DNA of 64,000 bases from [Pseudopropionibacterium] massiliense (GTDB lineage: Bacteria; Actinomycetota; Actinomycetes; Propionibacteriales; Propionibacteriaceae): the NCBI RefSeq assembly GCF_900607225.1, contig NZ_LR027842.1, positions 222,812-286,811 of the forward strand, given 5' to 3'. Below are positions 1,833 to 37,656 of this stretch, piece by piece; the stretch's first letter is position 1, and each line of letters opens with the position of its first letter. The notes beneath the pieces were generated by a model. It was given only the letters and a program-made list of their open reading frames with translations, did no database searches and was not told the DNA's origin. The position numbers and the translations under genes were made by a program.

Positions 1833-1840
1833 GTTGTCTG

Positions 1841-1972: not shown

Positions 1973-1977
1973 TGCGC

Positions 1978-5221: not shown

Positions 5222-8200
5222 TTATGCCGCATCCCAGTCGGCCAACCTCTGGGCTAGGTCGGAAGCGAGCTGCGCAACTCGGGGTTCAAGCATGATTGAT
5301 ACGTGATCCCCTTCGATGGGGACGACCTGCAAGCCGGGCAGATAAAGCCCCCATCCGAGGTCGATGCTGGTGTCGATCTGCTCGGTGGCGCCCAGTGACT
5401 GATCCTCTGCGCGATAGAGGATCGACTCTCCGCCGAAGGACGGGGGCTCGAAGGTGCTCATGAGTTGCAGGCTTCGGCGATACGATTCCCAGAGTTTCTG
5501 CACGATGCCGGCACCCACGTCCTCAAGGTTGGCTACCGAGATCACCCGCTCGACAAAATCGTCGTCAGTTCCCTTGTCCCCCACTGCATCCCCGACCTCG
5601 GTGACGATCGGCCCCAGGCGGTGACTCAGATAGGCGGTGAACCGCGCTCGGTTCAGTCCACCGGTCACATCGGAACGTGGCACCGGGGCGTCCACGAGTA
5701 TCAAGCGGGCCTGCTGCTCCTCACGTGTCAGCTGGTCCGCCATAAGCGAAGCGACGAGACCGCCGAAGGACCAGCCCCCCACCACGTAGGGCCCGGACGG
5801 CTGGATCTCGCGGATCCGTTCTACGTAGTACGCGGCGAGATCGCGCATTGATGTCGTGGGGACATCGACGTTAGGTTCTTCGAGCCCGTAGATCTTGGTA
5901 TCGGTGGGAAGCACCTGAACTAGCGGGAGGTACGCCATGGCGTTGCCGGCGGCGGCGTGTACGAGAAATACGGGCTGTGACGTCCCATTCTTGAGCAGGA
6001 CAACTGGATCGGGGCGACGGCTCTCGCATGCGAGTAGATCACGGACCATGCCTGCCATACCTCGTGGGGTGGGATGTTCGAGCAGCGACCGAACTTCAAT
6101 GTCGACGTCGAAGTTCTCGCTGAGCTTCGAACACAACGACAGCCCGAGCAACGAGTTGCCCCCCGTGTGGAAGAAGTTGAGGTTCACGGGCAGCGGCGGT
6201 AGATGGAGAACCTCGCCGAAGATCCGTGCCGCCGTGAATTCCACAGCGTCTGCAGCGTCGACGCTTTTCTCGTGACGCTCGAATGGGATAGGAGCGGGTA
6301 GCTGTGACTTGTTCACCTTGTCATTAGAATTTCTCGGAATCTCGTCCAGCACAGTGATGCTGTCCGGCCTCATGTGCGCAGGGAAGGCCTGCTCGACGAG
6401 TTGGTGCAATTCCTCGATCACACGCGTTTCTCTGCGACGTTCCAGAGGGGAGTTCACCGTTTTTTCCTGGTTCCGGTTGTCGGCCAACCGGGCCGCCAGG
6501 CCGAGCCGTGCAGCTGCCCGGAGCTTCCGCGACGCGAGAATTCGCAATGATCCAGCCAACGGACCGGGGACTGCATCCAAGTCATAGCCGAGGCTGGTGA
6601 GACGTTCATCGATGTCCGCGACGTGCACCGGAATGCCTGCCACGGTCGGCATCGTCAGGTCGCGTGTGCACCAGTCATCGACGAGCTCCGCAGTCCGGGC
6701 GTCGCGGATGCCTTCCAGAACCACCGCCTCTGCTGAATCCGACAGCGCCGCCCAGAAAGCATCGAGGTCATAGGTCACGTGAGGTTCGGGCAGTCTGGCC
6801 GGAGGAACATCGGTCTCATGCTTGAGGATGCGGACGTCGTAACGGAACAGCGACATCTCGTTGCTGTCCGGGAGATTCTTAACGACCGGAGACACTATCG
6901 CATCAACCTTGTCCGCGGCCCAGGAAGCGAAGAACCCAGGATCTAGGACCAGTTCCTCATCGTCACGGACCGCGGCCAAGACCTGCTCGGCCGTGATGAT
7001 AGATTCGTCCTCGCAGTTCTGCTCCTTCAGCCTCGCGAGATGGAACTCGGGCAGAAGCTGCAACGCTCGGATGTCGCCGATGAAGAGTTGCCCCCCCGAA
7101 CGGAGCTTGGACCAGGCCAAGTCGAGGACATGGGAGAGGTAGCTCGCGGAGGGGAAGTACTGGATGACCGAGTTCAGGACCACGATGTCAAATGTTCCTT
7201 CGAGGCTGCCGATGGCGTCGGCTGCGCACTGTTGAAGCTTGATGTGGCCGCTGCCCGGTGGCAGCTGCAAGATGTTGCGCCGAACCTCATTGAGGGCCCG
7301 CTCGGACATGTCGAGGCCGGTGACATCGACGCCGGCCTCAGCGAGTGGAAGCAGGACGATGCCCGTTCCGCAGCCCACGTCAAGGACTGTCCCCGGCTTG
7401 GAGAAGAGGATGCGTTCGACCGTCTCCGCGCCCCAGCGATTCATCTGCTCTGCCGGGATCCTCTGGTTCGCGAACGAGTCTCGCCATCCCACAAACCTCC
7501 GGACGCCATCGCCCTCGAGGTCGGCTGCTCCGTAGGTTGACTCGTAGAGCTGGCGCCAGGACTCAACGCGCCGGGCGGAATCCTCCGAGCACTCGCTCTT
7601 CTGGGGATCGAGCACCACATATGCGCTGAGGCCACGCTCAGCCCCGGTTCCCCGGCCCACGACGACCGCGGAGGTCACATCGACGTGCCCGAGCAGAACG
7701 TGCTCGATCTCGGCCGGTTCGATCCGAAAACCACGGATCTTGACTTGGTCGTCCGTGCGGCCCTTGAAGAGAACAAGACCATCCCGGCGCCTGGTGACGA
7801 GATCGCCAGTCGCGTACAGCCGACCGCGATGGGTTTCAGGGAACGCGCGTGCGGTCACCTCGGGCTGCTTGAGGTAGCCACGCGCGAGACAGATGCCTTC
7901 GAGAAAGAGTTCGCCGGGCGTGCTGAAGGGGATTTCAGCGCGTCCGGGACCGAGAATGTGCACGGTGGTATTACGGATGGGTGCCCCGATGGGGGGATCA
8001 CCGTTCTCGAGGACGCAGTGGTGACCGAGCGTCACGATGCTCGCTTCGGCCGGGCCGTACAAGTTGAATACGTGGTACTTGCTCGCATACCGCTCAACGA
8101 GGTCGACGGACAATGGTTCACCTATGGTGCTGAGGGTCCGTAGCGTTGGCACATCCAGTGGTTCTGGAAGCGCGGCAAGAGCGGAGGGGGTGTAGATTGC

Positions 8201-10297
8201 GTGCGTGACCCCAAACTGAGACATGAACGGCGCCATGCGTTCTGTGGGTGCCACATCCTCATCGCGCCCCACCACGAGAGTCGCCCCGGCACCGAACGTG
8301 GCGAACACCTCCAGAATGAACACGTCGAAGGTAGTGGCGCAGAACTGCAGCATCCGAGCTGATCGATCCAACTCCATCCGCTCGATCTCGCTGCCTACGA
8401 CGTTGTCCAAGCCGCCGTGAGTGACCATGACGCCTTTTGGCTTCCCCGTGGAGCCAGACGTGAACACGACGTAGGCGAGTTGTTCAGGGGCGGTCGTCGT
8501 GGGTAGCTCGACCTGTTTTGGCGGCTCTGATACCGCGTCCTCGAAGATCATCACATCGGGGTCGTTGATGAGTTGTTCTGGGGCCTCGTCCCGCCGGACG
8601 AGCACCACGGCAGGGTCCAGATCCTCCCGTAGTACGTCCCAACGCAGGCTCGGCCCGTCAGGGTTCACCACGCAGAACGCAGCTCCGGAGCGGTGAGTGG
8701 CGAGCATCGCCTCGACGAGTTCCGAGGAACGCCCGATGATGATGGCCACTATCTTCTCAGACCCGGCGCCCGCATCGATCAGTCTGGACGCCAGCCGACG
8801 AGTTCGCTCCTCGACCTCGCCATACGTGAGGTCACCTCCGGGACCGGTGAGCGCCAGACGGGCAGGGTCCTCCTGCGCCAACTCGGCGAAGCGGTGGTGC
8901 ACGCCAGGCTTCCCGGCTGGCACCCCCGTGATGTTTATCCCGTCCACTAGGGCGCGTTCGGCGTCCGTGAGGATAGGTAATTCATTCACCGGGGTGTCGG
9001 GGGTATCCGCCATCGCCTGGAGCACCACGACGAAGTGGTCGAGAAAATCACGGGCCATCTCAGCCTCCACCCGATGTGGGTCGAAGATGCAGCGCATCTG
9101 CAAGCCGTTGTGGATGAAGGCCATCAGCATGATCGGGACGCCGGTGCGGACGAAAAAGTCAACGTCATTGATCTGCAGGTCCGCAAAGCGCGTCCACGCC
9201 TGCTTGTTCTGCAGGGAATTCTGAAGCACCACCGCGTTCTGCAGCAGTGGGAGATCGACGGATTTCATGTGTGGCGGGACTTGTTCGCCCGAGAAGTTGT
9301 GCGACATGACCCTACGGGACAGCTGCTGCACATGGGGCAACCACTCGCGAACTGTCATACCCTCGGGAGGCGCCAACCTCAGAGGGGCGACATCAACGTA
9401 GACGCCGACGTGCCGGAGTGATTCCGGGATTTCGCGGGGGCGGCTGGCGCTCGTCAGCCCGACAACTGTTTCCTCCGAGCCCGCGTGACGTTGAACAGTG
9501 ACGGCCCACGCCGCGGTGATCAGGGTCGACAGGGTGATCCGCCCTGCTGCGAGCCTGCATTCCCAACGCCCCAGGATATTGTCGGGAATGCTGTGCTGCA
9601 CCCAAGCGTCGGTGTCCTCATCGGCAGGTGTTTTCTGAGGTACGGTTTCAATGCCCGGGAGTGGCGAGGGAACGTAACCTTCGAGGTGCGTGGCCCAGAA
9701 GTTACTGCTTTCCTTATCGTTGCGTCCAGCGAGCCACTCGACGAACTTGTGATGGGCTGCCCCTTGAGGATCTGGCGCGGTGCCTTCGGCGTAGGCCCTC
9801 TCCACGAGTGAGACCAGCAGCCCGACGCTCCACCCATCGAGTATCAGGTGGTGATGTGTCCACACGAAGACGTGAGTGTCGGGCCCCAGCGTAAAGAGGG
9901 CGTATCGGGACAGCGGCCCCTTCCGCAGGTCGAATCCCGCCAAGCGATCCGTGATGACATGGCGCTGGATCTCGTCATCCTGTCGCTCGGCGGTAAGCCC
10001 ACTGAGGTCTTTCACGGTCCAGTTGTCCTCCACCGAGCGGAGCACCACTTGCATGGGTTGGGCGCCGCGCCAGGCAAACACGGTGCGTAGCGGTGGCAGC
10101 GCTTGTGTCACCCGCGACCAGGCTTTGTGGAAGCGTTCCTGATCAAGTGGTCCGGTGAAGCGCAGGATTGTCTGTTCGACATAGAGACTCGGGTCATCGG
10201 ATGCGAGACATTCCGACAGCATGCTCGCCTGTGAGCTCACCAAAGGGTAGGCATCCTCGATCCGGTCCACACCCGAGGGGGTGGTGCTACGTGGCAT
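5222..10297 (-). CDS. NRPS module C-A(MT)-PCP-TE, terminal module
   Basis: This 1691-residue final enzyme should add one amino acid to the polyketide and release the product. Condensation domain: residues about 15-450, with HHLILDG at 149-155. Adenylation domain: from about 465, with TSGSTGKPKG near 613-622, an Asp in FDVFILEVF that normally holds the amino group, and YGPAEAS. A SAM methyltransferase (VLDVGCGTG at 971-979) interrupts the A domain after its GFRIEP motif. The A10-like motif (NSNDKVNKSQL) reappears near 1323-1333. PCP: Ser1382 in GGNSLL. Thioesterase: Ser1510 in GWSFGG, with Asp1536 and His1665 as likely partners. My hand-aligned specificity code (roughly D-V-L-Y-S-I-L-I-V-K) matches nothing I know, so the amino acid is not assigned. 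AGGAGG precedes the ATG. Confidence 0.94.
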   Translation of the reverse strand: MPRSTTPSGVDRIEDAYPLVSSQASMLSECLASDDPSLYVEQTILRFTGPLDQERFHKAWSRVTQALPPLRTVFAWRGAQPMQVVLRSVEDNWTVKDLSGLTAERQDDEIQRHVITDRLAGFDLRKGPLSRYALFTLGPDTHVFVWTHHHLILDGWSVGLLVSLVERAYAEGTAPDPQGAAHHKFVEWLAGRNDKESSNFWATHLEGYVPSPLPGIETVPQKTPADEDTDAWVQHSIPDNILGRWECRLAAGRITLSTLITAAWAVTVQRHAGSEETVVGLTSASRPREIPESLRHVGVYVDVAPLRLAPPEGMTVREWLPHVQQLSRRVMSHNFSGEQVPPHMKSVDLPLLQNAVVLQNSLQNKQAWTRFADLQINDVDFFVRTGVPIMLMAFIHNGLQMRCIFDPHRVEAEMARDFLDHFVVVLQAMADTPDTPVNELPILTDAERALVDGINITGVPAGKPGVHHRFAELAQEDPARLALTGPGGDLTYGEVEERTRRLASRLIDAGAGSEKIVAIIIGRSSELVEAMLATHRSGAAFCVVNPDGPSLRWDVLREDLDPAVVLVRRDEAPEQLINDPDVMIFEDAVSEPPKQVELPTTTAPEQLAYVVFTSGSTGKPKGVMVTHGGLDNVVGSEIERMELDRSARMLQFCATTFDVFILEVFATFGAGATLVVGRDEDVAPTERMAPFMSQFGVTHAIYTPSALAALPEPLDVPTLRTLSTIGEPLSVDLVERYASKYHVFNLYGPAEASIVTLGHHCVLENGDPPIGAPIRNTTVHILGPGRAEIPFSTPGELFLEGICLARGYLKQPEVTARAFPETHRGRLYATGDLVTRRRDGLVLFKGRTDDQVKIRGFRIEPAEIEHVLLGHVDVTSAVVVGRGTGAERGLSAYVVLDPQKSECSEDSARRVESWRQLYESTYGAADLEGDGVRRFVGWRDSFANQRIPAEQMNRWGAETVERILFSKPGTVLDVGCGTGIVLLPLAEAGVDVTGLDMSERALNEVRRNILQLPPGSGHIKLQQCAADAIGSLEGTFDIVVLNSVIQYFPSASYLSHVLDLAWSKLRSGGQLFIGDIRALQLLPEFHLARLKEQNCEDESIITAEQVLAAVRDDEELVLDPGFFASWAADKVDAIVSPVVKNLPDSNEMSLFRYDVRILKHETDVPPARLPEPHVTYDLDAFWAALSDSAEAVVLEGIRDARTAELVDDWCTRDLTMPTVAGIPVHVADIDERLTSLGYDLDAVPGPLAGSLRILASRKLRAAARLGLAARLADNRNQEKTVNSPLERRRETRVIEELHQLVEQAFPAHMRPDSITVLDEIPRNSNDKVNKSQLPAPIPFERHEKSVDAADAVEFTAARIFGEVLHLPPLPVNLNFFHTGGNSLLGLSLCSKLSENFDVDIEVRSLLEHPTPRGMAGMVRDLLACESRRPDPVVLLKNGTSQPVFLVHAAAGNAMAYLPLVQVLPTDTKIYGLEEPNVDVPTTSMRDLAAYYVERIREIQPSGPYVVGGWSFGGLVASLMADQLTREEQQARLILVDAPVPRSDVTGGLNRARFTAYLSHRLGPIVTEVGDAVGDKGTDDDFVERVISVANLEDVGAGIVQKLWESYRRSLQLMSTFEPPSFGGESILYRAEDQSLGATEQIDTSIDLGWGLYLPGLQVVPIEGDHVSIMLEPRVAQLASDLAQRLADWDAA

Positions 10298-10345
10298 GTT
10301 TTCCTCCTTCTGTCGTCGTCAGTGCTCCGAGACCGGGTCAGCCGG

Positions 10346-13300
10346 TCACAGACCGAGCTCTTGCGCGAGCGCGTTTCGAAGGTCGTCCGGTACGTCGCTC
10401 TTGGCCGACCATGCGCGGAGCGTTTCCATGAAATCGTTCGCGAGTTCTTCGAGGTCTGCGTTTCCGACCTGTTCGACATCACGCCACCAAGCGATCTCGA
10501 GCTTGCCACCTTCCCGTGTCACTTCCAGCTGGATGTCGTGACCAAGGCCCGGCTGGGTGATGGCCTCCAAACGATGTGAACGGATGACTTGGAGCGGTGC
10601 ATCGTCCGGAGGAGGCTGGATGGCCCGGTAGTACAGCAGGATGCCGCCATGCCCGGAACTCTCGGGGCGGCGAACGTGCGAGAGTCGTGCAGCGTCGTAC
10701 CCAAAGCCTTGATGCAGCGGGGTCTCGATGCCCTGCTCCTTCAGCCAGGCCACCGGGAAGACGGTGGTGAACCACCCGACCGACCGTGACAGATCGACAC
10801 CCTTCAGCCGGACCGAGCGCATGGTGCCTGCCATCTCGAAGACGGGCACCGAGCCGGGTAGGCGATGAACGAGGGCCTCGCCAAGTGCTTCGGCGAGGAT
10901 CGTTTCCAAGGGCACACGGTTCGTTTGCTGTGCTGTCAGTAGGTCCGCGGTGAGGGCTGGCTCCATCGTCGAGGTGAGTCGTTCGTATCGCCGCCGCCTT
11001 GACATACCTTTGGGAGCCCCGGGCCCTTTGGGAACCCCGGGCGCAGGCAGCTGGTTCTGTGTCACCAGCGGGTTTCGAGACAGCTGCGAGGCAACGCGGG
11101 TCCACTCGGCCCAGGTCGACGACGTCGGAGGCAGGTCGTCGGAGCCCCCCAGGAGCCGTGAGAGCTCATCGACAATGAGGTGCTGGGATGTGGCGTCGAC
11201 GAACGCGTGTGGGACGATGATCCCCAGCAGAGTCCCGGATCCGCCATCGTCCCAGACGTGTACCTGCACGAGTGGTTCGTCCTCGGTCGCGTTTGTGATC
11301 GCACTGCCGAGGATGCTCTCGGCATCGTCGAGCGTTCCGGTGCCGTGGAAGGTGATTGGCATCTGACGCTCTGCAACCAGACGCCCCGAGACGGGTAGTG
11401 TGGTTGCGTCGATGGTGAGGCGTAAGATGTCGTGGCGTTCAAGAAGTATTGAGAACGCTCGCTCGATGGTGCTGCTGTCGAGTCTCGTTCGGCTCTGCAG
11501 TAGGAGCGGGATCCGCCACGCGTGCCAAGGCAGTCCCCCCTCGTGCACGAGCCGGAGCTGTGTGGGGACCAGATCGACGATCACGTTGCCGTTCTCGTCC
11601 ATCTCGGGATCGATGAGATCCTTACCGAGTCGGGCGGCGAGGTCGCCGATGCTTTCTGCCTCCAGCACATCTTCGGGGTTGAGCGGCCAACCCTGCTGTG
11701 TCATCTCGGCGGCCAAGCGAATGGCGACCACCGAGTCGCCGCCCAGGGCATAGAAATCGTCCTCGGCAGTGACGCCGGTCACCCCGAGCGTTTGCTCAAT
11801 GAGGTCGATGAGCAGTTCGGTGACGCCGAATGAACGCGGGCCCTGCTGCCGTGAACTCGCCACGTCAGGGGATGTACTCAGGGAATCAGCTGCCGGAATG
11901 ACTCGGTGATTCGTCTTTGCCCAGTGCCTGGTGCGCTCGAAGGGGTACCCGGGCAGGTGGACTGCTTGGGCTGTGGCACGTGTTGGGTCGTCGATCTGGA
12001 GGCCACTGGCCCACAGGTCGCCGAGGCAGCGGGCCAAGTTCATCCCGTCCTGAGGTGCACTTTCGGGGCCGAGTGTCAGAACCGTGTGGTGACGGGATTC
12101 GTCCCACGACACAGACGACCTCGCCGCAGAAATCAACGATCTTCCGGGGCCCACCTCGACAAGAATTGCTGGTCCTCTGCTCAGGACGAGGTCGACGTCG
12201 TCAGCAAATTGCACAGTACGTCGAATGTGGTTTCCCCAGCGTTGCGGGTCCGCCGCCTCACTGGCCGTGAGCCAGCTTCCCGTAATGTTGGAGGCCATCG
12301 GGATCTGGGGAGCGCGCAGGGTCGTTGTCGCCATGAGATCGGTAAACCGGGGGACGACTGGGTCCATGGCGGCGGAGTGGAACGCATGGCTCGTGATGAG
12401 TCGGCGTCCGGTGATTCCGGCAGACGACAGAGAATTGGTGATGCGTTCAAGTTTCCTGTCGCTCCCTGCGAGTACGACGTCAATCGGTGAGTTGATCGCG
12501 GCCACGTCCACGTTCTCGGTCCTGGCGGCGTCGATGACCATTTCAGCAACCCCATGGAACGAGATCATCGTGCCGGTGGGGCAAGCGGCCATGAGACGCC
12601 CGCGCTCACAGACGAGGAAGGAAGCAGTGTCGAGATCCATTATCCCCGCGGCGACAGCGGCCGCGAATTCACCGATGCTGTGTCCCAACACCACGTTGGG
12701 TGTCAGGCCTCGGGTTTCGAGAGCTTTCGTCCACGCGTATTGGACGGCAAAAAGCAGGGGCTGAGCAAGGTCGGTGCTGTTGACCCGCTTTCGGCCGGTG
12801 AGCAACGCCCCAAAATCGGTGTCTGATACCTTGCTCAGGCTGGTGAGCGCTTCCTGCAGTGGGCCATCGAAGTCGGGCTCGGCCTTGGCCAGCGGTATCC
12901 CCATGCCCGGGAACTGAGAACCCTGTCCGGTGTACAGGAAAACCAAGTCGTAGCAATCATTCTCGGTGAGGGCAGTCCGCTGTTGGACGGTGCCCCCATG
13001 AAGCAGCGCCGTCGCATCCTCCACGGTACGAGCCGAGACCGTGCAGCGGTACAGGTGCGTGCGGTTGCGGCGCACAAGGGTGGACTCGACTGCCGCGAGT
13101 GAGGGCTGCTTCGCAGCCAAGTGGTTCGCGAGCGCGAGACGTGAGCGTGTGAGCGCCTCAGGGCTCGCGGCGCTCAACCGCAGCGTCGTAATCCCGTCAT
13201 GTGAGGCTTTTGGATTCGGAGGGGTGGTGGATTGAAGGACAACGTGCACGTTCGTGCCTCCGACACCGAGCGAGGTCACTCCCGCAATGCGGGTCGGCGT

Positions 13301-14539: not shown

Positions 14540-14542
14540 GGT

Positions 14543-15325
14543 TCACATCCCTCCGGTGTATGATTCTGTGCCATTCGTCACCGGGGCGCACAGCTTGCTG
14601 AGAATTTGCTCTGTGGCGTCCCAGAGAAAGAAATGACCGCCTCGGAAATGGTGTATCCGGAGTGGACGAGTGAAATTGGAAGCCCACATCTCCAATGTTC
14701 CCGGGAGCACCATTTGGTCAGCGCAGCCCGAGAACACCTCGGGGATCGGTTTCGTGAGCGGGGATAGTTCTTTGAACTGATACTCGTCGGAAAGCCGCAG
14801 ATCCTCGACCAAGGGCTCCATCAGGAGCATTAACAGTTCCTCGTGTGCGAGGATCTCCTTCGGCATTCCTCCCAGAGCAGTCAGCACCCTGAGGAGCTCA
14901 TCGTATGGCAGCTTGCTGAGTTTCGTCGTCGACTGGTGCTGAGGCGCCGACCGCGCCGACAGGCCCAGGCGCAGGGGCCCGAATCCGAACTCATGCTCCA
15001 GGTTGCGAGCAACGAGAAAGGCTACCAATGCCCCGAGCGAATGACCGAAGAACACGAACGGTCGGTCGTCGTGCTCGTCGAGGAAATCCCTTGTGAGTGT
15101 TTCTACTAAACGCTCCATGCACGAGGGGTGGGCCTCGCGGTACCGGTCATGGCGGCCTGGCATCTGACATGAGACCACCTCTACGCCGGAGGGAGCTCGA
15201 AAGGCCCAGGTGCGATACGCGGCGGCGCTTCCCCCCGCGTAGGGAAAACAGTACAGCCTCCACGCTGCGTGAGGCCGCGGTTGGAACGCGAGATAGCGTG
15301 CGGCGTGGCTGTGGCTACTGGTCAT
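14543..15325 (-). CDS. Type II thioesterase (editing)
   Basis: This 260-residue alpha/beta hydrolase resembles GrsT/RifR-type external thioesterases, which clear misloaded or stalled acyl groups from carrier proteins. The N-terminal LYCFPYAGGSA, the nucleophile elbow GHSLGA (Ser96) and the C-terminal GGHFFLWD with the likely catalytic His are all present. It sits inside the assembly-line operon. Its start overlaps the end of the upstream PKS gene by 11 bp, and it stops 3 nt before the ATG of the next PKS gene, so it is made with the synthases. GAGGAGG precedes the ATG. Confidence 0.93.
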   Translation of the reverse strand: MTSSHSHAARYLAFQPRPHAAWRLYCFPYAGGSAAAYRTWAFRAPSGVEVVSCQMPGRHDRYREAHPSCMERLVETLTRDFLDEHDDRPFVFFGHSLGALVAFLVARNLEHEFGFGPLRLGLSARSAPQHQSTTKLSKLPYDELLRVLTALGGMPKEILAHEELLMLLMEPLVEDLRLSDEYQFKELSPLTKPIPEVFSGCADQMVLPGTLEMWASNFTRPLRIHHFRGGHFFLWDATEQILSKLCAPVTNGTESYTGGM

Positions 15326-29000: not shown

Positions 29001-29020
29001 TACGACGACTTCTCGATCAT
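20090..29020 (-). CDS. Bimodular PKS: AT-less KS-KR-ACP, then KS-AT-DH-ER-KR-ACP
   Basis: 2976 residues. Module one: KS at about 35-450 (Cys191, His326, His366 all present), then directly a KR region (about 480-900) and ACP (Ser982 in GIDSLM); no AT motif (GHSxGE) is found. Its KR has a Rossmann loop GANGPVG, Tyr821 and a Ser, but Ser825 replaces the usual Asn and the HAAGV motif is altered, so it may be weak or inactive. Module two is fully reducing: KS (Cys1217), AT (Ser1566, VASH 1665-1668), DH (His1831 in HQVNGITVMP, Asp1994 with Gln1998), ER (about 2265-2580, TSASGGVGLA), KR (about 2600-2775, TGAFSGLG, SYAAAN) and ACP (Ser2896). The start forms an ATGA overlap with the upstream gene. Confidence 0.94.
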   Translation of the reverse strand: MIEKSSYTRLAALDSRQSNRLVEALRSASSQLSSEPIAVLGVACRLPGNVHGIADFDRLLAEGRTPISPAEPRRWIGDPHGVRAGFISGLDRFDANFFGLTPREVESLDPQQRLALESAIEAIEDSGRTVDDLRGSTTGVFLGIYHHDFGEALGSESTPYSASGNAHSVAAGRLAYTLDLSGPAISFDTACSTSLVAIHQAARSLSMRECDGAIVVGVNVILSRHTHDSLDSWGMLSPRARCSPFDAAADGFVRGEGVGSVYLKRLSDAIRDGDEVLAVIRGSAVNQDGRSQGLTAPRGAAQVAVIEQALENAGIPSTSVGYIETHGTGTALGDPIEYEALHEVYGKPATTGEPCILGAVKSNIGHLEAAAGIVGFIKAVMVVGSGRIPRNPGFDRLNPHIGERPTRLRVAENAVEWQTDRPRRAAVSAFGFSGTNAHVVLEEGSRTAAWPRPAPRTWNHEKSWPLPMSDSRATPDGWFLVPDLVELPALAGAPRAVTIEVLSATGNSAEALAEALRARGAEVTSGRIDSWRPGETQVTIVMPETGRDLTDLDGLRDEAAELAGLATRLEKLPGHQMVIATHSAHPRFNTAVDPIASSWWGWARACALEMGATFGGAVDADTDETLAEGLLTHLTAKDGELFTVMDAGRRLVPRLLPAPDSVTQLAPEELDDEHSYLIVGANGPVGLALADHLVARGAVHLTLTGRGEPSEELVQRMTALNEQGADLRWVQAHADDFDQMRHVIDAFGADRPPLTGVFLTAFAGRQIDMAELTASDIDEMYRPKVNAAVYLDELTADLDLSIFALFSSTTGCLGSKQLAHYSGASAFLDGLAHRRRQRGLPALTIDWGIWAGRLEETTDHERRHVEGSGLRAMDDRLAIHALDQLLSQPDKAQVMVADADWELLRTAYSTQTSFTLVDDLLCPPTEHTKEAQGAATLAATAPRDRERAVVAWVQQVVANCIHLSDPGQLPVDKGFFDLGIDSLMGVQIQRTLSNDFGIELSPTAVYSHPTVTALAAHIRELTQPVEKTAPADASTTPSTAPEEPIAIVGMACRFPRGETIDEFWTTLSTGRDAISHVPSQRWDADSFSDPDPTALGTIRTDRGGFLTRWDPAQFDAEFFGISPREAAAMDPQQRLMLELSIETLNDAGLPPLGLQGTRTGTFIGITTHDYMTLQIRANSPEDVDAYTGTGIAANFAAGRVSYHLRLQGPAMAVDTACSSSLTALHLALGELRSGTCDAALVGGVNLMLVPDTSVSFTRWGMLSPRGFCASFDDSADGFVRGEGGGMIMLKPLSAALRDGDRVVAVLRGSSCGQDGESAGQTVPNGAAQSAVISDALARSGLTPDDIDFVETHGAGTAVGDPIELEALGEVFGDRKDPIILGALKSVTGHMEAAAGIGGIIKTALAISHRQIPPNLHFQKLTSQVTPRASHVEVPSVLTSWPATAGRPARAGVSSFGASGTNVHIIIESGPANASSNGVWLFSGQGSQWDGMGNNLLETSPAFAKAVADLTPHFERETGCSLRPLLTGEAPLEGIELVQPAIFCMQVALAEMWRSLGAQPTAVIGHSMGEVAAAVVAGALDIADGMAIIARRSKLLSTISGNGLMAMLEATETTAREVVRKHPDVDIAVLSAPEQTVLSGTPEAIRAITKEFQDRGLFAREIAVDVASHSPQVDRLLPTLRKVLKGITPHEPDVPFLSTVSGQPTFDPDYWADNLRRPVQLMGSLERAFADGEKQFVEMAPHPLLGASVLDCAAGRDVTFVPSMRRHDPSIRPNPRSTRSPVTWNRKRHWFEATVRDTGDFSLLGQHGVTPSGEHVFTRRDLLGSAPWLSDHQVNGITVMPLAAWVAMIVEAVDTIKNEPTSVRISNLELHSMLALGESTDVTTSLEPAGADTWRVRIGSLSPSWRLHASAQVTVVPPTDMSKADSDWNGPGIWKDFPVTRLYERLRSVGQQHSGVFTPVADAALGSDGTATAHLRITSHRAAGRRMRIFPPLLDGALQTLAVPSPAEATDTVLPERIGSIHVTGRFGNDATAQARIIQDDDGRATGAVRMTTEKGWVDISGIILRRLDAPASPEVPLFDQCWTDLPDVSEQPGSTRVHIVSSGETSTQLADQLEATFGTSAVEIASTSDPAGLPEAVCVVVDSTTDLDVVGVLMAIQRAATRILGWKLRDTPRLYCLVKVPATGTEQPTEAALRAFCRVLAYEHPDLRASVVSFDALEEAAVVSHVQADSPERDVALVGGTTRTCRLQQVQPMPRELILPVGVSTIARAEVQNGSMTWVEVPNPPLDKNEVLIQVEAAGLNFSDVLKRRGSYPLRPGETSILGGELVGTVIACGSQTEFSPGERVFGLATGTFGTTIRARAELLSRVPDGLSITDAATLPTAYATALHCLDNIARLGAGETILVTSASGGVGLAAITFARHLGARTIVTAGTRTKRSYLRSLGFEDVLDSRAPDLAERVKKLTGGVDVVLNTLTGTAFHQLLSVLRPEGRFVELSKNATFGHGTLNLAALARGGSFSAVDLAYLMHHDIGAARRLLTEVVDGVADGWVTPLPTRSFELSRLDDALAAFSDQDHHGKIIVTGATNIEAQPPANRVVRPSGSYIVTGAFSGLGWVTTSWLAAQMPRRLVLNGRNGPDKACAATIEQWKTDGLEIDIVLGDVTEAETIAELVGHARKAGPLRGVIHSAGVVRDQTIRAIDEDTMRSVFRPKVDAARLLLDAIADDDLDFCVLFSSAAALLGSPGQGSYAAANAAMEALALQRAERGCPVKVISWGPWAETGLATSFSTLGYHALTNAEGLGALERIIRSSLQRTGVFHMDARQWFQSYPVVSELPYFSELEIDPDTSKSDVLLLAGATTDAEARDRVHGLVVRELGAVLRCDPCTIDPQAPFASFGLDSLMALELRNRLEHSGCVRLPVTLIWSSPTVEQLTDALLRVLRGDLLRESAEESTSPVISDEDAQWITNLGKALRDGEEERA

Positions 29021-32000
29021 TGGTCCTCAACCTCCTCCAGGAGTTGTTCGAATGCCGAGGTCTCATGTGCATGATCCGGATCCGGTATGGGCGGCGCATT
29101 CACCGTGTCGGTTACGGGGCCCAGCTCATGGGCGGCGATGATTGTGTTGATGGTGGGATGGTTCCACAGGAAGCCCACTGGAAGGTCGGCTCCGACGAGT
29201 TCATTGAGGCTGCGCAGAATACGTAGAGCGAGGATTGAGTCCATACCGTATTCCGCTAGCGGACGGTCGTACGACAGCTTATCGGTGATGCCCAGATGGT
29301 GGCGCACGATGGAGCCGACCAAACGGTGTCGCTCGGCTTCGTCGGCACGTTCCCACTCATCGGAAGTGTTGCCAGTTCGGTTGGCCCTGCCCCCCACGAT
29401 GAAGGCTTGGGGTGACTGCTGCGAGAAGGCCCAGATACTTGCTCTCAGGGCTGCTTCGGGTCGGAGCTCATTCCATCCTTGCGAGCGCAACGCCTCAGAT
29501 GCCAGTTTGGCTCGGTCATCGCCCGCCATTCCGACGGAAGCCCACGGTCCCCAGTTCACGACCCGCCAGTTGTGTCCTGACGCTACTGCGCGACGCACAA
29601 TCCCGTCGACGAGCGCGTTGGCGGCGGCATAAGCGCTCTGCCCCTGTACGCCCCTGATGGATGCAGCGGATGAAAACACTATCCCGCACGTGCCCTCGTC
29701 GCAGACATCCAGCAACTCCGTCAGGGCGCCCGCTTTGATGGCGAGGGTTCGCCCCAGTTCTGCGGTGGACAGGTCCGTCAACGCGACGTCGGGGGAATAC
29801 CCGGCCAGGTGGTAGACAAAGCCGATTCTGCGTCCCGTGTCGAGCTGCCACTGGCGTAGCCAGTCGGACAGGGCCCCGTGCTCGACGAGGTCGACGGTGG
29901 CAATCCAGACGGTGACGCCTTGTTGCGACAGCTCATCCATGAGGAGGGGATCTGGCCGACTTCGCGTCACCAACACCATGACTCGGGCTCCGTGATCGGC
30001 CAGGAAACGAACGAGAAGCCGCCCGATGCCACCAAATGCACCAGTCACCAGCACCGCGTCCTCTGTATCAAGGTCAAACGACCTGGGATGCGGTACTGGC
30101 GAGAAGGAACCGAGTTCTAGGGACCAGCCGCAAAGTTCTCCCGTCGAGGTGGACGTTGGGGAGTCGATTATTCCCAACCAGCGGTCGGGATACTCGGCAG
30201 CGATCGGGCTGGCAAGACCCCAGAGTGCACAGGCCTCGGGAGAGGCCGCAGTTGTGTTCCATAGTCCGCTGGTCGCGATCGCGAGACGCTCACCAGGCTT
30301 CAAAGCGTCTAGGCGCCGCCGGGCTTCAAGGACCAGTTTCGTCGCAGCCGCCACCGGGTTGGGGTCTGCCCGGCCGGGAGCTGGTACCGCCCACACGGTG
30401 GCCCCGGTGCGGTTTAATGTGGTCTTGCGCCACATGACCTTAGCCTGCATCGCGTCGGGTGAGCTGCCGAGGTCGTGCGCAGAGAGGTCTGTCAGGAGAA
30501 GAAGCGGAGTGTCTGCCCTATCTTTCGCGATCACTTGCCACACCCCGTCCTCGAAATGTCCAGTGACGATCGCCTCGTCGGCGGTGGAAGTGCCTAACTC
30601 CGCTACCGCACCCACGCCCACGGGTGTCATCGTGGTCCCGGCTGCGAGAGAGGGCAGCAGGCAGGCTGCGTCGAGCAGCGCAGCGAGACGTGAGTTACGG
30701 CTCTCTGGCAGTTTTATGCGTAAGGCGACGCGGGTCTCGTCGTGGAACCAACCGGTGGGGCAGCCTGGCCCTGCCAGCGCGGCCAGCACCTCGTCGGTGG
30801 GCTCCTCCCACTCGTTGGGTTCCCATCCAGTGGTGTTTGGAGGAGCCATCAAAGGCTTCTCGGATGTTTGGGCCGATGCGACCAGTGTCGCGTCAGAAGC
30901 GCCCGGCTCGGCGACATGGATCGTGACCTCGCCGCTATTCGTGGTCGTCAGTACCTCCTGCACTTTTTCCAAGCTCAGGGGCGAATGGAACAAGACCTCC
31001 TTCACGTGGCCATAACCAGCGATGAGGAGCGTGGACAGCAGCTTCCAAGCGGGTACGACGGGCCGATTGCCTAGGCGATGACTTTCCTTCTGGGGCATAG
31101 AAGTCGAGCGCCACAGCCTGAGGTCGGCCGTGCCCGGGAGGCTGAGCATGGACCCCAGCATGTGGTTCTTGCCGCAGATTGGTGCAGACGACACGGGCTT
31201 GCGCCGCCGGTGTTGGTCATGGTTGGTGTCCCGGTTCCACCGGCGTCTTGAGGGCAGGTCCTCCTGGACATCCCGGACGAGTCCGGGGCGCACGGTAATG
31301 TCCTCACCGGACGCCGTCTCGGCTATGGCTGTGAGCAGTGCGGGATGTGGGGACACCTCGACGAATGCCCGGACTCCCAGGTTGAGGACTTCCTTTACCG
31401 CCTCGGTGAAGAACACTGGCTGCCTCAAGTTCTTGATCCAGTGTGAGACGCCTTCGCTCGGATGGCTGCCGCTGACGGTGCTGATAAGCGGGATCTCGCC
31501 CGGGAGGACCTCCAAGGTCTCGACTGCTTCCCGGAAGGGGTCGAGCACCTCGTCCATCAGCGGGCAATGTGAGGCGAAATCGACGTCCAGATAACGAGGC
31601 TCGGCCGCTTCCGAACCTAGACGGTCCACGGCTGCTTTGACAGCGCCGGGCTTTCCGGAAATTAGGGTCATGGTTGGGCTGTTGTGGCCGGCGACCCACA
31701 CATCATCAAGTCCATCGATGATCTCGCCCGTACGCTGGGCGGAAGCGGAACTGATGACCATGGCTCCTTTCCCGGAAAACCTCTGGAGACATTCGGCACG
31801 TCGGCAGATGAGACGCGCCGAATCTTCCGGGGACAGAATGCCTGCGATGCAGGCTGCGGCCACCTCTCCCATAGAGTGTCCGATCACGAATGCGGGGCGA
31901 TAACCGCGCTCCAACCAGAGTGAGGCCAGCGCCACCTGGATGGTGAATAGTGCAGGCTGGACCTGCATGGGGCCTGAGGGGAGTCGACCCTCTGCGATCA

Positions 32001-33705
32001 GTTCCCGGATCGAGAAGCCGGAGTATTTGTGGATGACCGGGTCGATACGGTGGACCATCTGAGCGAAGCCCGGCTCGGCGAGGAGGTTCTGCCCCATTCC
32101 GGCCCATCGGGATGTCTGCCCAGAGAACACCCAAGCAGGGTCCACGTCCGAGCCATAGGGTGGCGGCTGCTCAAGCACCACGTGCGAATTCGAACCTCCG
32201 AAGCCGAAGGATGAGACCCCTGCCCTGCGGGGTCTGGAGCCATCCGGCCAAGGACGAAGGCCGGTCACTACCTCGAAACCGGAGAAGTCGATCATCGGGT
32301 TCGGGGCCTCGAAGTGGATGGATGGCGGCAATGTTTCCTCGGACATTGCCAACAGAACCTTGATGACACCGGCCATCCCTGCGGCGCCCTCCAGATGACC
32401 AATGTTGCTCTTGACGGAGCCGACGAGGAGAGGCGTCCCGATTCTGCGACGACCGTAGGCGTCGCCCAGAGCCTCAATCTCGATGGGGTCGCCCAGGGCT
32501 GTACCAGTTCCGTGACACTCGACATAGGAGATCTCGTCGGCGTTCACTCCCGAGTTCGCGAGTGCCTGCCGCAGAACCGCCGACTGGGCGGAGGTGCGCG
32601 GTGCCAGGAGGCCGTTGGAGCGGCCGTTCGTGTTGACGGCCGAGCCTTTCACAATGCCTCGGATACGGCTGCCGTCGCGCAGGGCAGTGTTCAATCGCTT
32701 CACTACGAGGACCCCACATCCCTCGCTGCGAACATAGCCGTCTGCCCGGTGGTCGAAGACTTTGCAGCGGCCATCGTCGGCCATTGCACCGGCATGGCTG
32801 AACGAGAGCCCACCAGCGGGTGACAGAAGGAAGTTGACTCCGGCGACGAAGGCCATGTCGCACTCACCGGCACGAATGCTCGTCGCTGCGACGTGCAAGG
32901 CCACGAGCGACGAGGAACAGGCGGTGTCGATCGCAATGCTCGGCCCGGAGAGGTCGAAGTTGTAGGAGAGTCGGTTGGCGAGCATGGCAACAGATGCCCC
33001 GGAATTGGTCCAGGCATCCACCTCGGCGAGGTCAGCGGCTGCGGTGAGGATGTGCTCGTGTCCGCTGACCCCGACAAAGACCCCGACCGCGCGTCTCGCG
33101 ATCTGGCAGGGAAGCAAACCGGCATCTTGGAGAGCGTCGCTTGCGACTTCCAGGAGCATTTGCTGTTGGGGATCCATGCGTGCAGCTTCGGTGGGCGAGA
33201 TAGCGAAGTACTGGGCGTCGAACCCGAAGGGATCATCAATAAGTCCCGCGTACCGGGGGACGCCTTCCTGTCGCAGGTGTGACGGGACGAACCCAAGCGC
33301 CGACCAGCGGGAGTCGGGGACTTCGCTGATCGCATCGGAGCCGGTGTACAACATGTCCCAGAATTCGACGAGTCCGTTCTTGGCGCCCGGGAAGCGACAG
33401 GCGATCCCCACAATCGCCATGGGCTCGTTGTCGTCTTGCGGCGGTGTGTCGCCGGGCTGCGTGAAAGGCTGTTCCCCGGCAAGCCGCTGGGCGAGCTGGC
33501 GGATGGTCGGGTAGTTCCACGCTGCTGTGGCCTCCAAGGTCTGGCCGCTCGCCTCTTCCACAGCGGTATTGAGCGCGATGAGATCACGTGATCTCAGACC
33601 AAGATCCGCCCACGTGCTCGTCGCAGGTATGGTCGCGTCGTGCTTCCCGGTCTGATCTCGGACCCAGTCCTGTAGCCAGTGTTCCCAACTGGAAGTATCG
33701 TGCAT
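29017..33705 (-). CDS. Loading PKS: ACP-KS-AT-(degenerate DH)-KR-ACP
   Basis: This 1562-residue protein probably receives the FAAL-activated starter. From the ATG at 33705: N-terminal ACP-like domain with Ser39 in an unusual GLRSRD motif; KS about 90-510 (Cys263 in DTACSSS); AT about 520-800 (Ser611 in GHSMGE, FASH at 710-713); a DH-like fold from about 865, where HRLGNRPVVP (His876) lacks the usual Gly and LLDAACLL lacks the second-motif Gln/His; KR about 1215-1415 with TGAFGGIG and AYAAAN complete; ACP with Ser1490 in GMDSIL. If the DH is dead, this module leaves a beta-hydroxyl. A TTG at 33717 is an alternative start; neither has a strong ribosome binding site. Only 24 nt separate it from the FAAL gene. 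Confidence 0.92.
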   Translation of the reverse strand: MHDTSSWEHWLQDWVRDQTGKHDATIPATSTWADLGLRSRDLIALNTAVEEASGQTLEATAAWNYPTIRQLAQRLAGEQPFTQPGDTPPQDDNEPMAIVGIACRFPGAKNGLVEFWDMLYTGSDAISEVPDSRWSALGFVPSHLRQEGVPRYAGLIDDPFGFDAQYFAISPTEAARMDPQQQMLLEVASDALQDAGLLPCQIARRAVGVFVGVSGHEHILTAAADLAEVDAWTNSGASVAMLANRLSYNFDLSGPSIAIDTACSSSLVALHVAATSIRAGECDMAFVAGVNFLLSPAGGLSFSHAGAMADDGRCKVFDHRADGYVRSEGCGVLVVKRLNTALRDGSRIRGIVKGSAVNTNGRSNGLLAPRTSAQSAVLRQALANSGVNADEISYVECHGTGTALGDPIEIEALGDAYGRRRIGTPLLVGSVKSNIGHLEGAAGMAGVIKVLLAMSEETLPPSIHFEAPNPMIDFSGFEVVTGLRPWPDGSRPRRAGVSSFGFGGSNSHVVLEQPPPYGSDVDPAWVFSGQTSRWAGMGQNLLAEPGFAQMVHRIDPVIHKYSGFSIRELIAEGRLPSGPMQVQPALFTIQVALASLWLERGYRPAFVIGHSMGEVAAACIAGILSPEDSARLICRRAECLQRFSGKGAMVISSASAQRTGEIIDGLDDVWVAGHNSPTMTLISGKPGAVKAAVDRLGSEAAEPRYLDVDFASHCPLMDEVLDPFREAVETLEVLPGEIPLISTVSGSHPSEGVSHWIKNLRQPVFFTEAVKEVLNLGVRAFVEVSPHPALLTAIAETASGEDITVRPGLVRDVQEDLPSRRRWNRDTNHDQHRRRKPVSSAPICGKNHMLGSMLSLPGTADLRLWRSTSMPQKESHRLGNRPVVPAWKLLSTLLIAGYGHVKEVLFHSPLSLEKVQEVLTTTNSGEVTIHVAEPGASDATLVASAQTSEKPLMAPPNTTGWEPNEWEEPTDEVLAALAGPGCPTGWFHDETRVALRIKLPESRNSRLAALLDAACLLPSLAAGTTMTPVGVGAVAELGTSTADEAIVTGHFEDGVWQVIAKDRADTPLLLLTDLSAHDLGSSPDAMQAKVMWRKTTLNRTGATVWAVPAPGRADPNPVAAATKLVLEARRRLDALKPGERLAIATSGLWNTTAASPEACALWGLASPIAAEYPDRWLGIIDSPTSTSTGELCGWSLELGSFSPVPHPRSFDLDTEDAVLVTGAFGGIGRLLVRFLADHGARVMVLVTRSRPDPLLMDELSQQGVTVWIATVDLVEHGALSDWLRQWQLDTGRRIGFVYHLAGYSPDVALTDLSTAELGRTLAIKAGALTELLDVCDEGTCGIVFSSAASIRGVQGQSAYAAANALVDGIVRRAVASGHNWRVVNWGPWASVGMAGDDRAKLASEALRSQGWNELRPEAALRASIWAFSQQSPQAFIVGGRANRTGNTSDEWERADEAERHRLVGSIVRHHLGITDKLSYDRPLAEYGMDSILALRILRSLNELVGADLPVGFLWNHPTINTIIAAHELGPVTDTVNAPPIPDPDHAHETSAFEQLLEEVEDQ

Positions 33706-33729
33706 GCTTTGTACCAACTTCGCGATCGT

Positions 33730-35451
33730 TCATCGAAACTGAAGCGTCTGTGCACTCAGTGCGCGAGGGTTTTCGGCCTCGCAGGCGTACCACTTGTCAC
33801 GGGCCAGAGGGCGCTGGATTTTTCCGCTGGTTGTCAGCGGAATAAACCCGGGCGGCACCAGTGCCACGATGGCCGAGGTCAGCCCGTGATGAGTTGTGAG
33901 CGCAGAGCGGATGAGCGAGGACAGCTTGTTGTCGTCTTCCTCCGTCAGGCTCCGTCGTTCGGCGATGATCAAGGGGACTTCGGTTTCGCCGGTATCGTGG
34001 GAAACCACCGCGACACGTCCTGGCCTGATTCGGGGATCAACTTGTTGAACCGTGTGCTCAAGGTCTTCGGAGTATTGGTTGCGTCCATCAATGATAAGCA
34101 TGGCTTTTAACCGGCCCACAATATGTAGATCGTCGTCAATCATCATCACGAGATCGCCCGTTCGCAGCCACGGACCACCATTGTCTTCGGGCAGGGACTG
34201 GAATGCCTGCTCGGTGTGATCGTTGTCCTGCCAATATCCTTGGGCGATGTTCGGGCCGCGGAGCCAGAGCTCTCCGACACGTTCCTGAGGAAGAGTCTCA
34301 AGGGTGGTGGGGTTGACGACCTGGTACTCCGTGCCTTCGGCAATGGGGCCGCAACTCACGAGGTCGACTGAGTCGGTTTTGTTCCGTGGCGGCTTTAGGT
34401 ATCCCTCGGACAACCCGTCGCGGGAGGCTGCGTGTACTTTGAGCCGTGATGTGCATGAGACGAACACTGTTGCTTCGGCCATGCCAAACGATGGCCTGAC
34501 TGAGCCTGCCGGAAGGCCGTACGGAGCCAAAGCTTCCTCAAATTTCTGAATGGTTGACGGTCGCACGGGCTCGGAGCCATTGAGGAGCCAGTGAATGCGG
34601 GAGAGATCGAGGTCGTCGTAGTCTTTGCCCACACCACGTTGAAGCACGTATTCGTAGGCGAAGTTGGGGGATCCGGTGATCGCAGGTTCCGGGCAGTCCA
34701 GCTCGCGGATCCAGCGGCTCGGGCGTCGCAGAAACGATTCCGGGGACATGCAGGTGGTCGGGAGGCCGACCATGACTCCTAAGCCCAGTGCGAAGATGAG
34801 GCCCATGTCGTGATGTATCGGTAGCCACGACACAACCCGGTTGTCGGGGGTGATGTCGAGGCCTGCGCAGGATTGTCTCACGTTGAATTCGAACGCAGAA
34901 TGCGTGATCATGGCTCCGGACGGGCGTGAGGTCGAGCCCGATGTGTACTGCAGATAGAGGATATCGTCAGGGCGTTCCCCAGCGGAGGCGAGGCATCTCT
35001 GAATGTCGGTGTCGTCGCTCGGTTCGCCCATCAGAGCCTCGGCATCAAGGATGAGCGTGTCGTGGCCCACATACGTACCGGCTTCGGCGAGCGATGTCTG
35101 GTTCGTGAGGATGAACCGAGGTTTGCAACTATGCAAGATGGCATCGACCCGACTGCGATCACTTTTGGCGGGCGTCGGCGCGAAAAGCGGGACGGCGATC
35201 ACCCCGCCCAAGGTGCATGCGATGAATGAGAGCCAGTAAGCTCGTGATGTGGGGAGCATGATGACGGCACGTTCTCCCGGACCACGTGACGATGTGCGAA
35301 GGACTTGAGCCAGACGACAGGCCTGCCCCGCTATGTCTTGCCATGATGCAGTTTCGCGGTGAACTGTGCCGTGTGGATAGGTCAGCCACTCGATGGATGA
35401 GGCAAGTGGATTTGTTTCCAGACGCTTAATAACTAAGTCTCTGATGGTCAT
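33730..35451 (-). CDS. Fatty-acyl-AMP ligase (FAAL)
   Basis: This 573-residue adenylating enzyme heads the assembly-line operon. Enzymes of this class convert a fatty acid to acyl-AMP and hand it to an ACP rather than to CoA. Visible motifs are TSGSTSRPSGAM (phosphate loop), WLPIHHDMGL, FGMAEATVF, LRTGDLVM and the C-terminal TTSGKIQRP with its catalytic Lys. The WLPIHHDMGLIF and EGTEYQVVNP stretches are characteristic of the FadD32-like group rather than acyl-CoA synthetases; a FAAL-specific insertion would confirm this. The partner is most likely the N-terminal ACP of the next protein. The preceding 177-bp gap should hold the operon promoter. Confidence 0.92.
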   Translation of the reverse strand: MTIRDLVIKRLETNPLASSIEWLTYPHGTVHRETASWQDIAGQACRLAQVLRTSSRGPGERAVIMLPTSRAYWLSFIACTLGGVIAVPLFAPTPAKSDRSRVDAILHSCKPRFILTNQTSLAEAGTYVGHDTLILDAEALMGEPSDDTDIQRCLASAGERPDDILYLQYTSGSTSRPSGAMITHSAFEFNVRQSCAGLDITPDNRVVSWLPIHHDMGLIFALGLGVMVGLPTTCMSPESFLRRPSRWIRELDCPEPAITGSPNFAYEYVLQRGVGKDYDDLDLSRIHWLLNGSEPVRPSTIQKFEEALAPYGLPAGSVRPSFGMAEATVFVSCTSRLKVHAASRDGLSEGYLKPPRNKTDSVDLVSCGPIAEGTEYQVVNPTTLETLPQERVGELWLRGPNIAQGYWQDNDHTEQAFQSLPEDNGGPWLRTGDLVMMIDDDLHIVGRLKAMLIIDGRNQYSEDLEHTVQQVDPRIRPGRVAVVSHDTGETEVPLIIAERRSLTEEDDNKLSSLIRSALTTHHGLTSAIVALVPPGFIPLTTSGKIQRPLARDKWYACEAENPRALSAQTLQFR

Positions 35452-37592: not shown

Positions 37593-37620
37593 GGTGTTTT
37601 CCTCCGGCTCTTCTGGGAAC

Positions 37621-37656
37621 GGTGTTCCCCGCAGTGATGCTACTGCGGGGAACACC
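37621..37656 (-). terminator. 15-bp perfect hairpin after the repeat-protein gene
   Basis: GGTGTTCCCCGCAGT and its exact reverse complement flank a 6-nt loop, between the stop of the upstream membrane-protein gene (37705) and the mshA-like start (37592). It probably separates the two transcripts. The only T-rich stretch lies on the other strand's side. Confidence 0.65.

What the first reader, a model, noticed from the sequence alone, without database searches (positions are those of the whole stretch)
5222..35451. Complete FAAL-primed PKS/NRPS assembly line with collinear gene order
FAAL, four PKS proteins, a type II thioesterase and a terminal NRPS module are all on one strand with gaps or overlaps of at most about 50 bp, in the order of use. 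Seen: domain motifs and active-site residues. Known: FAALs load ACPs. Inferred product: a fatty-acyl-primed, partly reduced polyketide ending in one methylated amino acid. I do not recognise this exact domain order from a named pathway.
Basis: partly seen in the sequence, partly recalled or inferred. Interest (0 to 1): 0.82.

Follow-up and report, generated by a model that had tools for sequence, protein, structure and literature searches.

The report
Phthiocerol-type lipid assembly line plus amino acid
A relative of the mouth bacterium Propionibacterium acidifaciens carries a gene set laid out step for step like the one mycobacteria use to build the waxy lipid phthiocerol, but with an extra unit at the end that should attach a methylated amino acid.

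Summary
In detail: seven minus-strand genes (5222-35451) encode FAAL, four PKS proteins, a type II thioesterase and a terminal NRPS. Added detail: PKS-B's first module has no AT, PKS-D ends in a degenerate epimerization (E)-type domain, and the NRPS is C-A-nMT-T-TE. The same seven genes recur in Propionibacterium acidifaciens DSM 21887 (60-68% identity) and were not found elsewhere in the genomes sampled; in three congeners the site lacks them. The order is not unknown: FAAL, TEII and five PKS modules match a mycobacterial-type phthiocerol (Pps) locus position by position (5 of 5 modules score best against the same-position Pps-like protein; KS trees confirm two of five firmly). PKS-D is a full-length PpsE relative, and its dead E-type tail is shared with 9 of 9 PpsE-like proteins examined. 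New is the NRPS that follows: its C domain belongs to the group that normally follows E domains, and no NRPS motif was seen beside the nine PpsE-like genes. Best reading: a fatty acid is extended five times Pps-fashion, joined to an N-methyl amino acid and released by the TE, possibly as a tetramic acid. The product is inferred, not shown.

The parts
33730..35451 (-). FAAL (fatty acyl-AMP ligase), 573 aa
   Evidence: PF00501; the closest solved structures are FadD32 and FadD23. The NCBIfam FAAL models match below their curated cut-offs (best 402.5 of 775 bits).
29017..33717 (-). PKS-A: ACP-KS-AT-DH(remnant)-KR-ACP, PpsA position
   Evidence: Pfam; best of six G564 proteins is PpsA-like, 736 bits. 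DH assigned by position and remnant motif only.
20090..29020 (-). PKS-B: KS-KR-ACP (no AT) then KS-AT-DH-ER-KR-ACP, PpsB and PpsC positions
   Evidence: Pfam finds two KS and one AT; best matches PpsB-like 666 and PpsC-like 1186 bits.
25913..29020 (-). AT-less first module of PKS-B
   Evidence: Against the PpsB-like protein, residues 1-463 match 20-492 and 458-1031 match 963-1528, so 470 residues with the AT are absent; same gap in P. acidifaciens.
15315..20144 (-). PKS-C: KS-AT-DH-KR-ACP, PpsD position
   Evidence: Pfam; best match PpsD-like, 826 bits.
14543..15325 (-). Type II thioesterase (TesA position by kind, not by place in the locus)
   Evidence: PF00975, GHSLG motif; TEII genes also lie in the G564 and G1051 loci (26-27% identity).
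10346..14539 (-). PKS-D: KS-AT-T-E*, PpsE position
   Evidence: Full-length match to three PpsE-like proteins, 36.6-39.0% over 1449-1472 aligned positions; 813 bits.
10346..11587 (-). E*: degenerate epimerization-type domain at the end of PKS-D
   Evidence: PDB matches, HMM and trees; HHxxxDG and EGHGRE motifs altered in both genomes.
5222..10297 (-). NRPS: C(DCL-type)-A(nMT inserted)-T-TE
   Evidence: Pfam; C domain in the post-E group.
6998..7585 (-). Methyltransferase domain inside the A domain, presumed N-methyltransferase
   Evidence: Methyltransf_25 and others, VLDVGCGTG, lies before the C-terminal A motif.
1954..5120 (+). ABC transporter ATPase (1954-2676) and FtsX/MacB-type permease (2670-5120), possible exporter
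   Evidence: Pfam; permease found in 1 of 39 genus genomes, the own one.
105..1613 (+). IS1634 family transposase at the island's edge
   Evidence: NF033559, 355 bits, cut-off 100.

Best explanation
A horizontally acquired phthiocerol(Pps)-type assembly line with a terminal NRPS module. FAAL adenylates a fatty acid and loads it on the N-terminal ACP of PKS-A. PKS-A and the AT-less first module of PKS-B (extender supplied in trans) each add a unit and reduce it to an alcohol, as PpsA and PpsB do for the phthiocerol diol; PKS-B module 2 adds a fully reduced unit (PpsC position); PKS-C adds a unit left as an alkene (PpsD position, no ER); PKS-D adds a last unit and leaves the ketone (PpsE position). 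Instead of release there, the E* tail of PKS-D meets the DCL-type C domain of the NRPS, which couples the chain to an N-methylated amino acid; the TE releases it, perhaps by Dieckmann closure to an N-methyl 3-acyl tetramic acid. Shown: gene order, domains, conservation in a second genome, Pps relatedness, E-type tail, DCL-type C domain, insertion at this site. Inferred: order of use, substrates, trans-loading, docking role of E*, product, export.
For: 5 of 5 modules best match the same-position protein of the G564 Pps-like locus; PKS-D joins PpsE-like with support 1.0 and PKS-B module 2 joins PpsC-like with 0.959 among 42 KS domains; TEII and FAAL lie beside the PKS genes in G564 as well; shared degenerate E tail, 0.995; C domain of the NRPS in the post-E group, 0.972; all seven genes conserved in P. 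acidifaciens; FadD26, PpsA-E and TesA roles in passages of PMC3709824.
Against: KS trees do not settle PKS-A, PKS-B module 1 or PKS-C; summed bits favour equal domain content. The KR of the AT-less module has Ser for the usual Asn (YSGAS). In P. acidifaciens the AT of PKS-D has Asp for its Ser, so its last extension must be loaded in trans or not occur. No metabolite, expression or structure data.
Confidence: 0.7

Rival explanations
1. Pps-derived, but the AT-less module (and PKS-D in P. acidifaciens) only passes the chain on, so the product is one or two units shorter than collinearity says.
For: No AT in the module in either genome; KR with Ser for Asn; Asp at the PKS-D AT site in P. acidifaciens.
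Against: Its KS keeps Cys and both His motifs; KS 80.0%, KR 70.9% and ACP 68.1% identity between the genomes, as high as in complete modules; [quoted passage not shown]
Confidence: 0.25
2. Not Pps-derived: an independent FAAL-PKS-NRPS lipopeptide line that came to the same module order.
For: FAAL, reducing PKS and NRPS meet in many lineages (recalled); three of five KS domains have no settled Pps partner; FAAL is only 34-35% identical to the FAALs of G564 and G1051.
Against: Full-length PKS-D/PpsE homology with a shared dead E tail; 5 of 5 diagonal.
Confidence: 0.1
3. The TE does not cyclise to a tetramic acid: it hydrolyses the chain, or closes a lactone on one of the alcohols, or transfers the chain to another molecule.
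For: The best solved relatives of the TE are Pks13 TE domains, which transfer a chain to trehalose (recalled); the predicted chain carries alcohols.
Against: A beta-keto amide on the last carrier is the usual precursor of tetramates (recalled).
Confidence: 0.6
4. E* still catalyses something (not epimerization) rather than docking.
For: Second His and Asp of HHxxxDG are kept in the window and in P. acidifaciens (PHAFVD); the fold has been kept since before the split from PpsE. Two Azotobacter E domains also lack the last Glu of EGHGRE while otherwise normal, so its loss alone does not prove inactivity.
Against: It is the least conserved PKS-D domain, 50.5% against 63-80%; a malonyl-type last unit offers no epimerizable branch.
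Confidence: 0.25

Closest known systems
Mycobacterial phthiocerol (DIM/PDIM) line: FadD26, PpsA-PpsE, TesA
   Same: FAAL priming, TEII, five modules in the same order and domain content, weak DH in the first, E-type tail on the last
   Different: AT of the second module lost; modules 2 and 3 fused in one protein; AT motifs of modules 1 and 3 differ (xASH against VAPH); NRPS with TE follows; no Mas or PapA5-like gene among the seven; TEII lies between PKS-C and PKS-D
FadD32-Pks13 (mycolic acid condensation)
   Same: FAAL feeding an N-terminal ACP on the PKS; TE of the NRPS has Pks13 TE as best solved match
   Different: Pks13 is a single condensing protein; no multi-step line, no NRPS
E-tailed PKS modules on Nostoc plasmids (L038 19992-26024, L039 7965-13994)
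   Same: PKS protein ending in T-E with altered E motifs; the next NRPS begins with a post-E-group C domain; in L038 one methyltransferase gene lies between
   Different: Their tails group with cyanobacterial NRPS E domains, 0.998, so an independent origin; L038 has a KR and lies beside siderophore uptake genes
3-acyl tetramic acid PKS-NRPS lines (recalled)
   Same: Last PKS module without reduction, then one amino acid module with a releasing domain
   Different: Cyclisation here is not shown; FAAL start and Pps order differ

Membership tests
Pps (phthiocerol, DIM) assembly line | FAAL and TEII beside the PKS genes | tested here: met
   Window genes; G564 has TEII 3038111 and FAAL 3040036 just before the PpsA-like gene
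Pps (phthiocerol, DIM) assembly line | Five modules in the PpsA-E order and domain content | tested here: not met
   Order met and 5 of 5 best matches on the diagonal, but the second module lacks its AT and an NRPS follows, so it works like a Pps line and is not filed as one
Pps (phthiocerol, DIM) assembly line | KS-by-KS common descent | tested here: inconclusive
   Firm for PKS-D (1.0) and PKS-B module 2 (0.959); three others unsettled
Pps (phthiocerol, DIM) assembly line | PapA5/Mas partners esterifying a diol | tested here: not met
   None among the seven genes or the annotated neighbours 105-5120 and 35629-42169; the rest of the genome was not searched for them
FAAL | Closest solved relatives are FAALs, not CoA ligases | tested here: met
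   18 sequences at E 1e-30 or better, led by FadD32 and FadD23; names only were judged
FAAL | Curated FAAL model cut-off | tested here: not met
   Best NCBIfam FAAL model 402.5 bits against a cut-off of 775; these models are for narrow mycobacterial or PRK groups
NRPS epimerization domain | Sequence groups with E, not C domains | tested here: met
   87 and 100 bits for E against 19 and 29 for C; tree support 0.999 and 1.0
NRPS epimerization domain | HHxxxDG and EGHGRE catalytic motifs | tested here: not met
   PHAFVDA/PHAFVDD and AGTMRS/EGTMRA
DCL condensation domain | Groups with C domains that follow E domains | tested here: met
   7 of 7 other reference members of the 0.972 node follow an E-type domain; one further reference domain (L047) joins at the 1.0 node and does not
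trans-AT PKS | AT-less modules served by a discrete AT | tested here: inconclusive
   One AT-less module; no discrete AT among the seven genes; two AT matches in short ORFs elsewhere in the genome, link not tested
Tetramic acid PKS-NRPS | Dieckmann-type release | not testable with these tools
   TE present; its chemistry cannot be read from sequence

The most novel reading that the evidence does not exclude
This line preserves the ancestral form of the phthiocerol pathway: a PKS whose last module was built on the T-E tail of an NRPS and handed its chain to a following NRPS. The mycobacterial line would be a derivative that lost the NRPS, and the condensation-like tail of PpsE would be the dead epimerase left over from that junction, now free for another use such as binding the thioesterase.
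Probability: 0.3. Interest if true: 0.78.

Novelty: new variant of a known kind. Interest (0 to 1): 0.6.

Why it matters
Phthiocerol lipids are regarded as a mycobacterial hallmark (recalled). A Pps-type line in two Propionibacteriaceae genera, one an oral species, with an NRPS partner still attached, gives an outgroup for how that pathway arose and a reason for the odd tail of PpsE. It also points to an undescribed lipid-amino acid product that can be looked for in a public type strain.

Tried and rejected
Rejected: (a) the PKS-D tail as a second ordinary C domain, as Pfam names it: PDB matches, HMMs and trees say E type. (b) An active epimerase: both motifs are altered in both genomes. (c) E-tailed PKS as unique to this line: also in nine PpsE-like proteins and two Nostoc plasmids. 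(d) A-domain substrate: the pocket, read by eye against LgrA with GrsA positions recalled, is DVLISILIVK (DVLIGVLIVK in P. acidifaciens); it fits no code I recall, and 'small residue' is a guess. (e) Naming the organism: its family is that of P. acidifaciens; Arachnia is my guess, not tested.

Led nowhere: structure prediction of the E* tail (queue full; accepted; unfinished through), so no fold search was made. A motif look at the genome's other ATs failed because the wrong frame was taken. An earlier count said all ten PDB matches are E domains; alignments were seen for the best four only. Whether the PpsE tail is already called E-derived in print was not searched for by name, and most subscription papers are not held. 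[quoted passage not shown] PMC11907408 and PMC10394414 were seen as passages.
Full report
What is there. The window holds seven minus-strand genes in one run from 35451 down to 5222, with gaps of 12, -4, -55, -11, 3 and 48 bp. Pfam and motif checks give: FAAL; PKS-A ACP-KS-AT-(DH)-KR-ACP; PKS-B KS-KR-ACP-KS-AT-DH-ER-KR-ACP; PKS-C KS-AT-DH-KR-ACP; type II TE; PKS-D KS-AT-T plus a tail; NRPS C-A(MT)-T-TE. The DH of PKS-A is not detected by Pfam and is assigned by position and a remnant motif (HRLGNRPVVP; in P. acidifaciens HLVQGRRVVP, which fits HxxxGxxxxP). NCBIfam FAAL models match below their curated cut-offs, but the best solved relatives are FadD32 and FadD23.

Where it sits. The genome (3.48 Mb, 6 contigs) is in the family of Propionibacterium acidifaciens. 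In three congeners the conserved MshA/MshB region that lies just upstream of FAAL (window about 35655 and beyond) is followed, after 0.06-2 kb of other sequence, by DNA that in the own genome lies beyond the window's start (G033, G022, G027). So about 36 kb or more is extra here: the cluster, an ABC transporter and an IS1634 transposase. GC is 0.59-0.65 over the cluster and 0.65-0.67 in the flanking and congeneric stretches. The transporter permease was found in 1 of 39 genus genomes, the own one.

Who else has it. With FAAL as query at E 1e-60, 3 of 198 family genomes match: the own, G027 (34%, a different gene) and G117 (62%). At 1e-110, 2 of 391 order genomes (own, G117) and 1 of 396 phylum genomes (own) match; only a few candidates per genome are scored by that tool. 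The NRPS matched over its full length only in the own genome of 39 in the genus; one other matched in part at 32%. A scan of named genomes, which used two peptide patterns and so sees near relatives only, returned one locus, P. acidifaciens DSM 21887; contig length and position show that it is G117. There all seven genes lie in the same order with open frames and 60-68% identity. Of 18 flanking ORFs of that contig tested against the window, one matched, and only two ABC ATPases; the contig ends 1.4 kb after the NRPS, so that side is hardly tested.

Which known line it resembles. Searching 394 class genomes with the T-plus-tail part of PKS-D, 77 have a match at 1e-12; the nine best non-self places are all from genus g43 and cover most of the query (98-126 bits), the rest score 85 bits or less. 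Around one of the nine (G564) lie, in order on one strand, a TEII, a FAAL and five PKS genes, then a Mas-like PKS on the other strand and a further FAAL. This is the layout of a DIM (phthiocerol) locus as I recall it, in accord with the pathway outline in PMC3709824 (passages). Pfam gives ACP-KS-AT-DH(weak)-KR-ACP, KS-AT-KR-ACP, KS-AT-DH-ER-KR-ACP, KS-AT-DH-KR-ACP and KS-AT-T-Condensation. G1051 has PpsA-, C-, D- and E-like genes but no PpsB-like one was seen, and the G1065 contig ends within the line. By summed BLAST bits each window module scores best against the same-position G564 protein: A-PpsA 736, B1-PpsB 666, B2-PpsC 1186, C-PpsD 826, D-PpsE 813. Equal domain content helps these sums, so KS-only trees were made. 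With 42 KS domains, PKS-D joins PpsE-like (1.0) and PKS-B module 2 joins PpsC-like (0.959); PKS-B module 1 and PKS-C fall in a wider group (0.828) with PpsB-, C-, D- and Mas-like and three Streptomyces KS domains, without a settled partner; PKS-A is unresolved.

The AT-less module. Against the PpsB-like protein, PKS-B residues 1-463 match 20-492 and 458-1031 match 963-1528: 470 residues holding the AT are gone, while a WNHEKSWP motif like those after the other ATs remains. The gap is the same in P. acidifaciens, with KS 80.0% and ACP 68.1% identical, so the module is probably kept by selection and loaded in trans. In P. acidifaciens the AT of PKS-D has Asp (GAC) where the window has the active-site Ser (AGC).

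The tail of PKS-D. Pfam calls it Condensation (E 4.3e-11). The 10 PDB sequences at E 0.1 or better are all NRPS chains (PvdL, bacitracin, tyrocidine and gramicidin synthases); the best four, all PvdL, were seen aligned, to a stretch with HHLVVDG and EGHGRE. HMMs were built from domains of ten plasmid loci: 7 E and 30 C by motif, then two Azotobacter domains were moved from C to E after their scores and VGWFT motif were seen. With 9 E and 28 C the window and P. acidifaciens tails score 87 and 100 bits for E, 19 and 29 for C (before the move 83 and 86 against 38 and 52); leaving one out, 9 of 9 and 28 of 28 references are classed right. The nine PpsE-like tails score 185-221 for E and 40-65 for C, and in all nine the last Glu of EGHGRE is Ser. 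Window, P. acidifaciens and PpsE-like tails form one group (0.995) within the E-type domains (1.0). It is the least conserved PKS-D domain between the two genomes (50.5% against 63-80%). The carrier before it reads GGDS, as do 10 of 10 carriers found before E domains in the reference loci and 2 of 6 found before C; 28 more had no such domain in reach and were not classed.

The junction. The C domain of the NRPS falls in a node (0.972) whose seven other reference members each come after an E-type domain, five in NRPSs and two after the E-tailed Nostoc PKSs (with one methyltransferase gene between in L038); an eighth (L047) joins at the next node (1.0) and does not follow an E. So PKS-D and the NRPS meet as an E/DCL pair normally does. 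In the stretches fetched around the nine PpsE-like genes (13.6-40 kb each) no A-domain motif was found; each holds instead a 420-478-residue HHxxxDG protein (PapA-like, recalled).

Mechanism and product. Priming by FAAL, two alcohols, one reduced unit, one alkene, one ketone, one N-methyl amino acid, release by TE. The AT motifs FASH, VASH and VASH of modules 1, 3 and 4 match PpsD-like and Mas-like (VASH; methylmalonyl users, recalled); PpsA-C-like have VAPH; module 5 has HAFH, as PpsE-like does. Methyl branches from units 1, 3 and 4 are thus likely. Phosphopantetheinyl transferase matches exist elsewhere in the genome (3 of 4 over the cut-off). All chemistry is inference.

Verdict.

Noticed in passing
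50452-61300: Type I-E-like CRISPR-Cas genes (Cse1, CT1975-like and a CRISPR_assoc protein) followed from 56812 by a long array with a 28-nt repeat at 61-nt spacing, at least 65 copies listed in one family.
   Followed up: partly
G000:C1:678433-702559 and G000:C1:2758533-2771803: Further PKS regions in the same genome, including a 5344-residue frame with two KS but only one AT match in the first region, and a FAAL-like match beside a KS in the second.
   Followed up: no
L044 (Azotobacter chroococcum plasmid pAcX50f), 8800-24852: Two E-type domains whose EGHGRE motif ends in Ala instead of Glu while HHxxxDG is intact.
   Followed up: no
G117:C17:47726-51904: In P. acidifaciens the AT of PKS-D has Asp in place of the active-site Ser, although the rest of the domain is 63% identical.
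   Followed up: partly
G1051:C1:1686215-1722045: A Pps-like line (PpsA-, C-, D-, E-like and TEII) facing a FAAL and a 2317-residue PKS frame on the other strand; layout differs from G564.
   Followed up: no
L038 19992-26024 and L039 7965-13994: Two Nostoc plasmids carry PKS proteins ending in an E-type domain with altered motifs, followed by an NRPS with a post-E-group C domain.
   Followed up: partly
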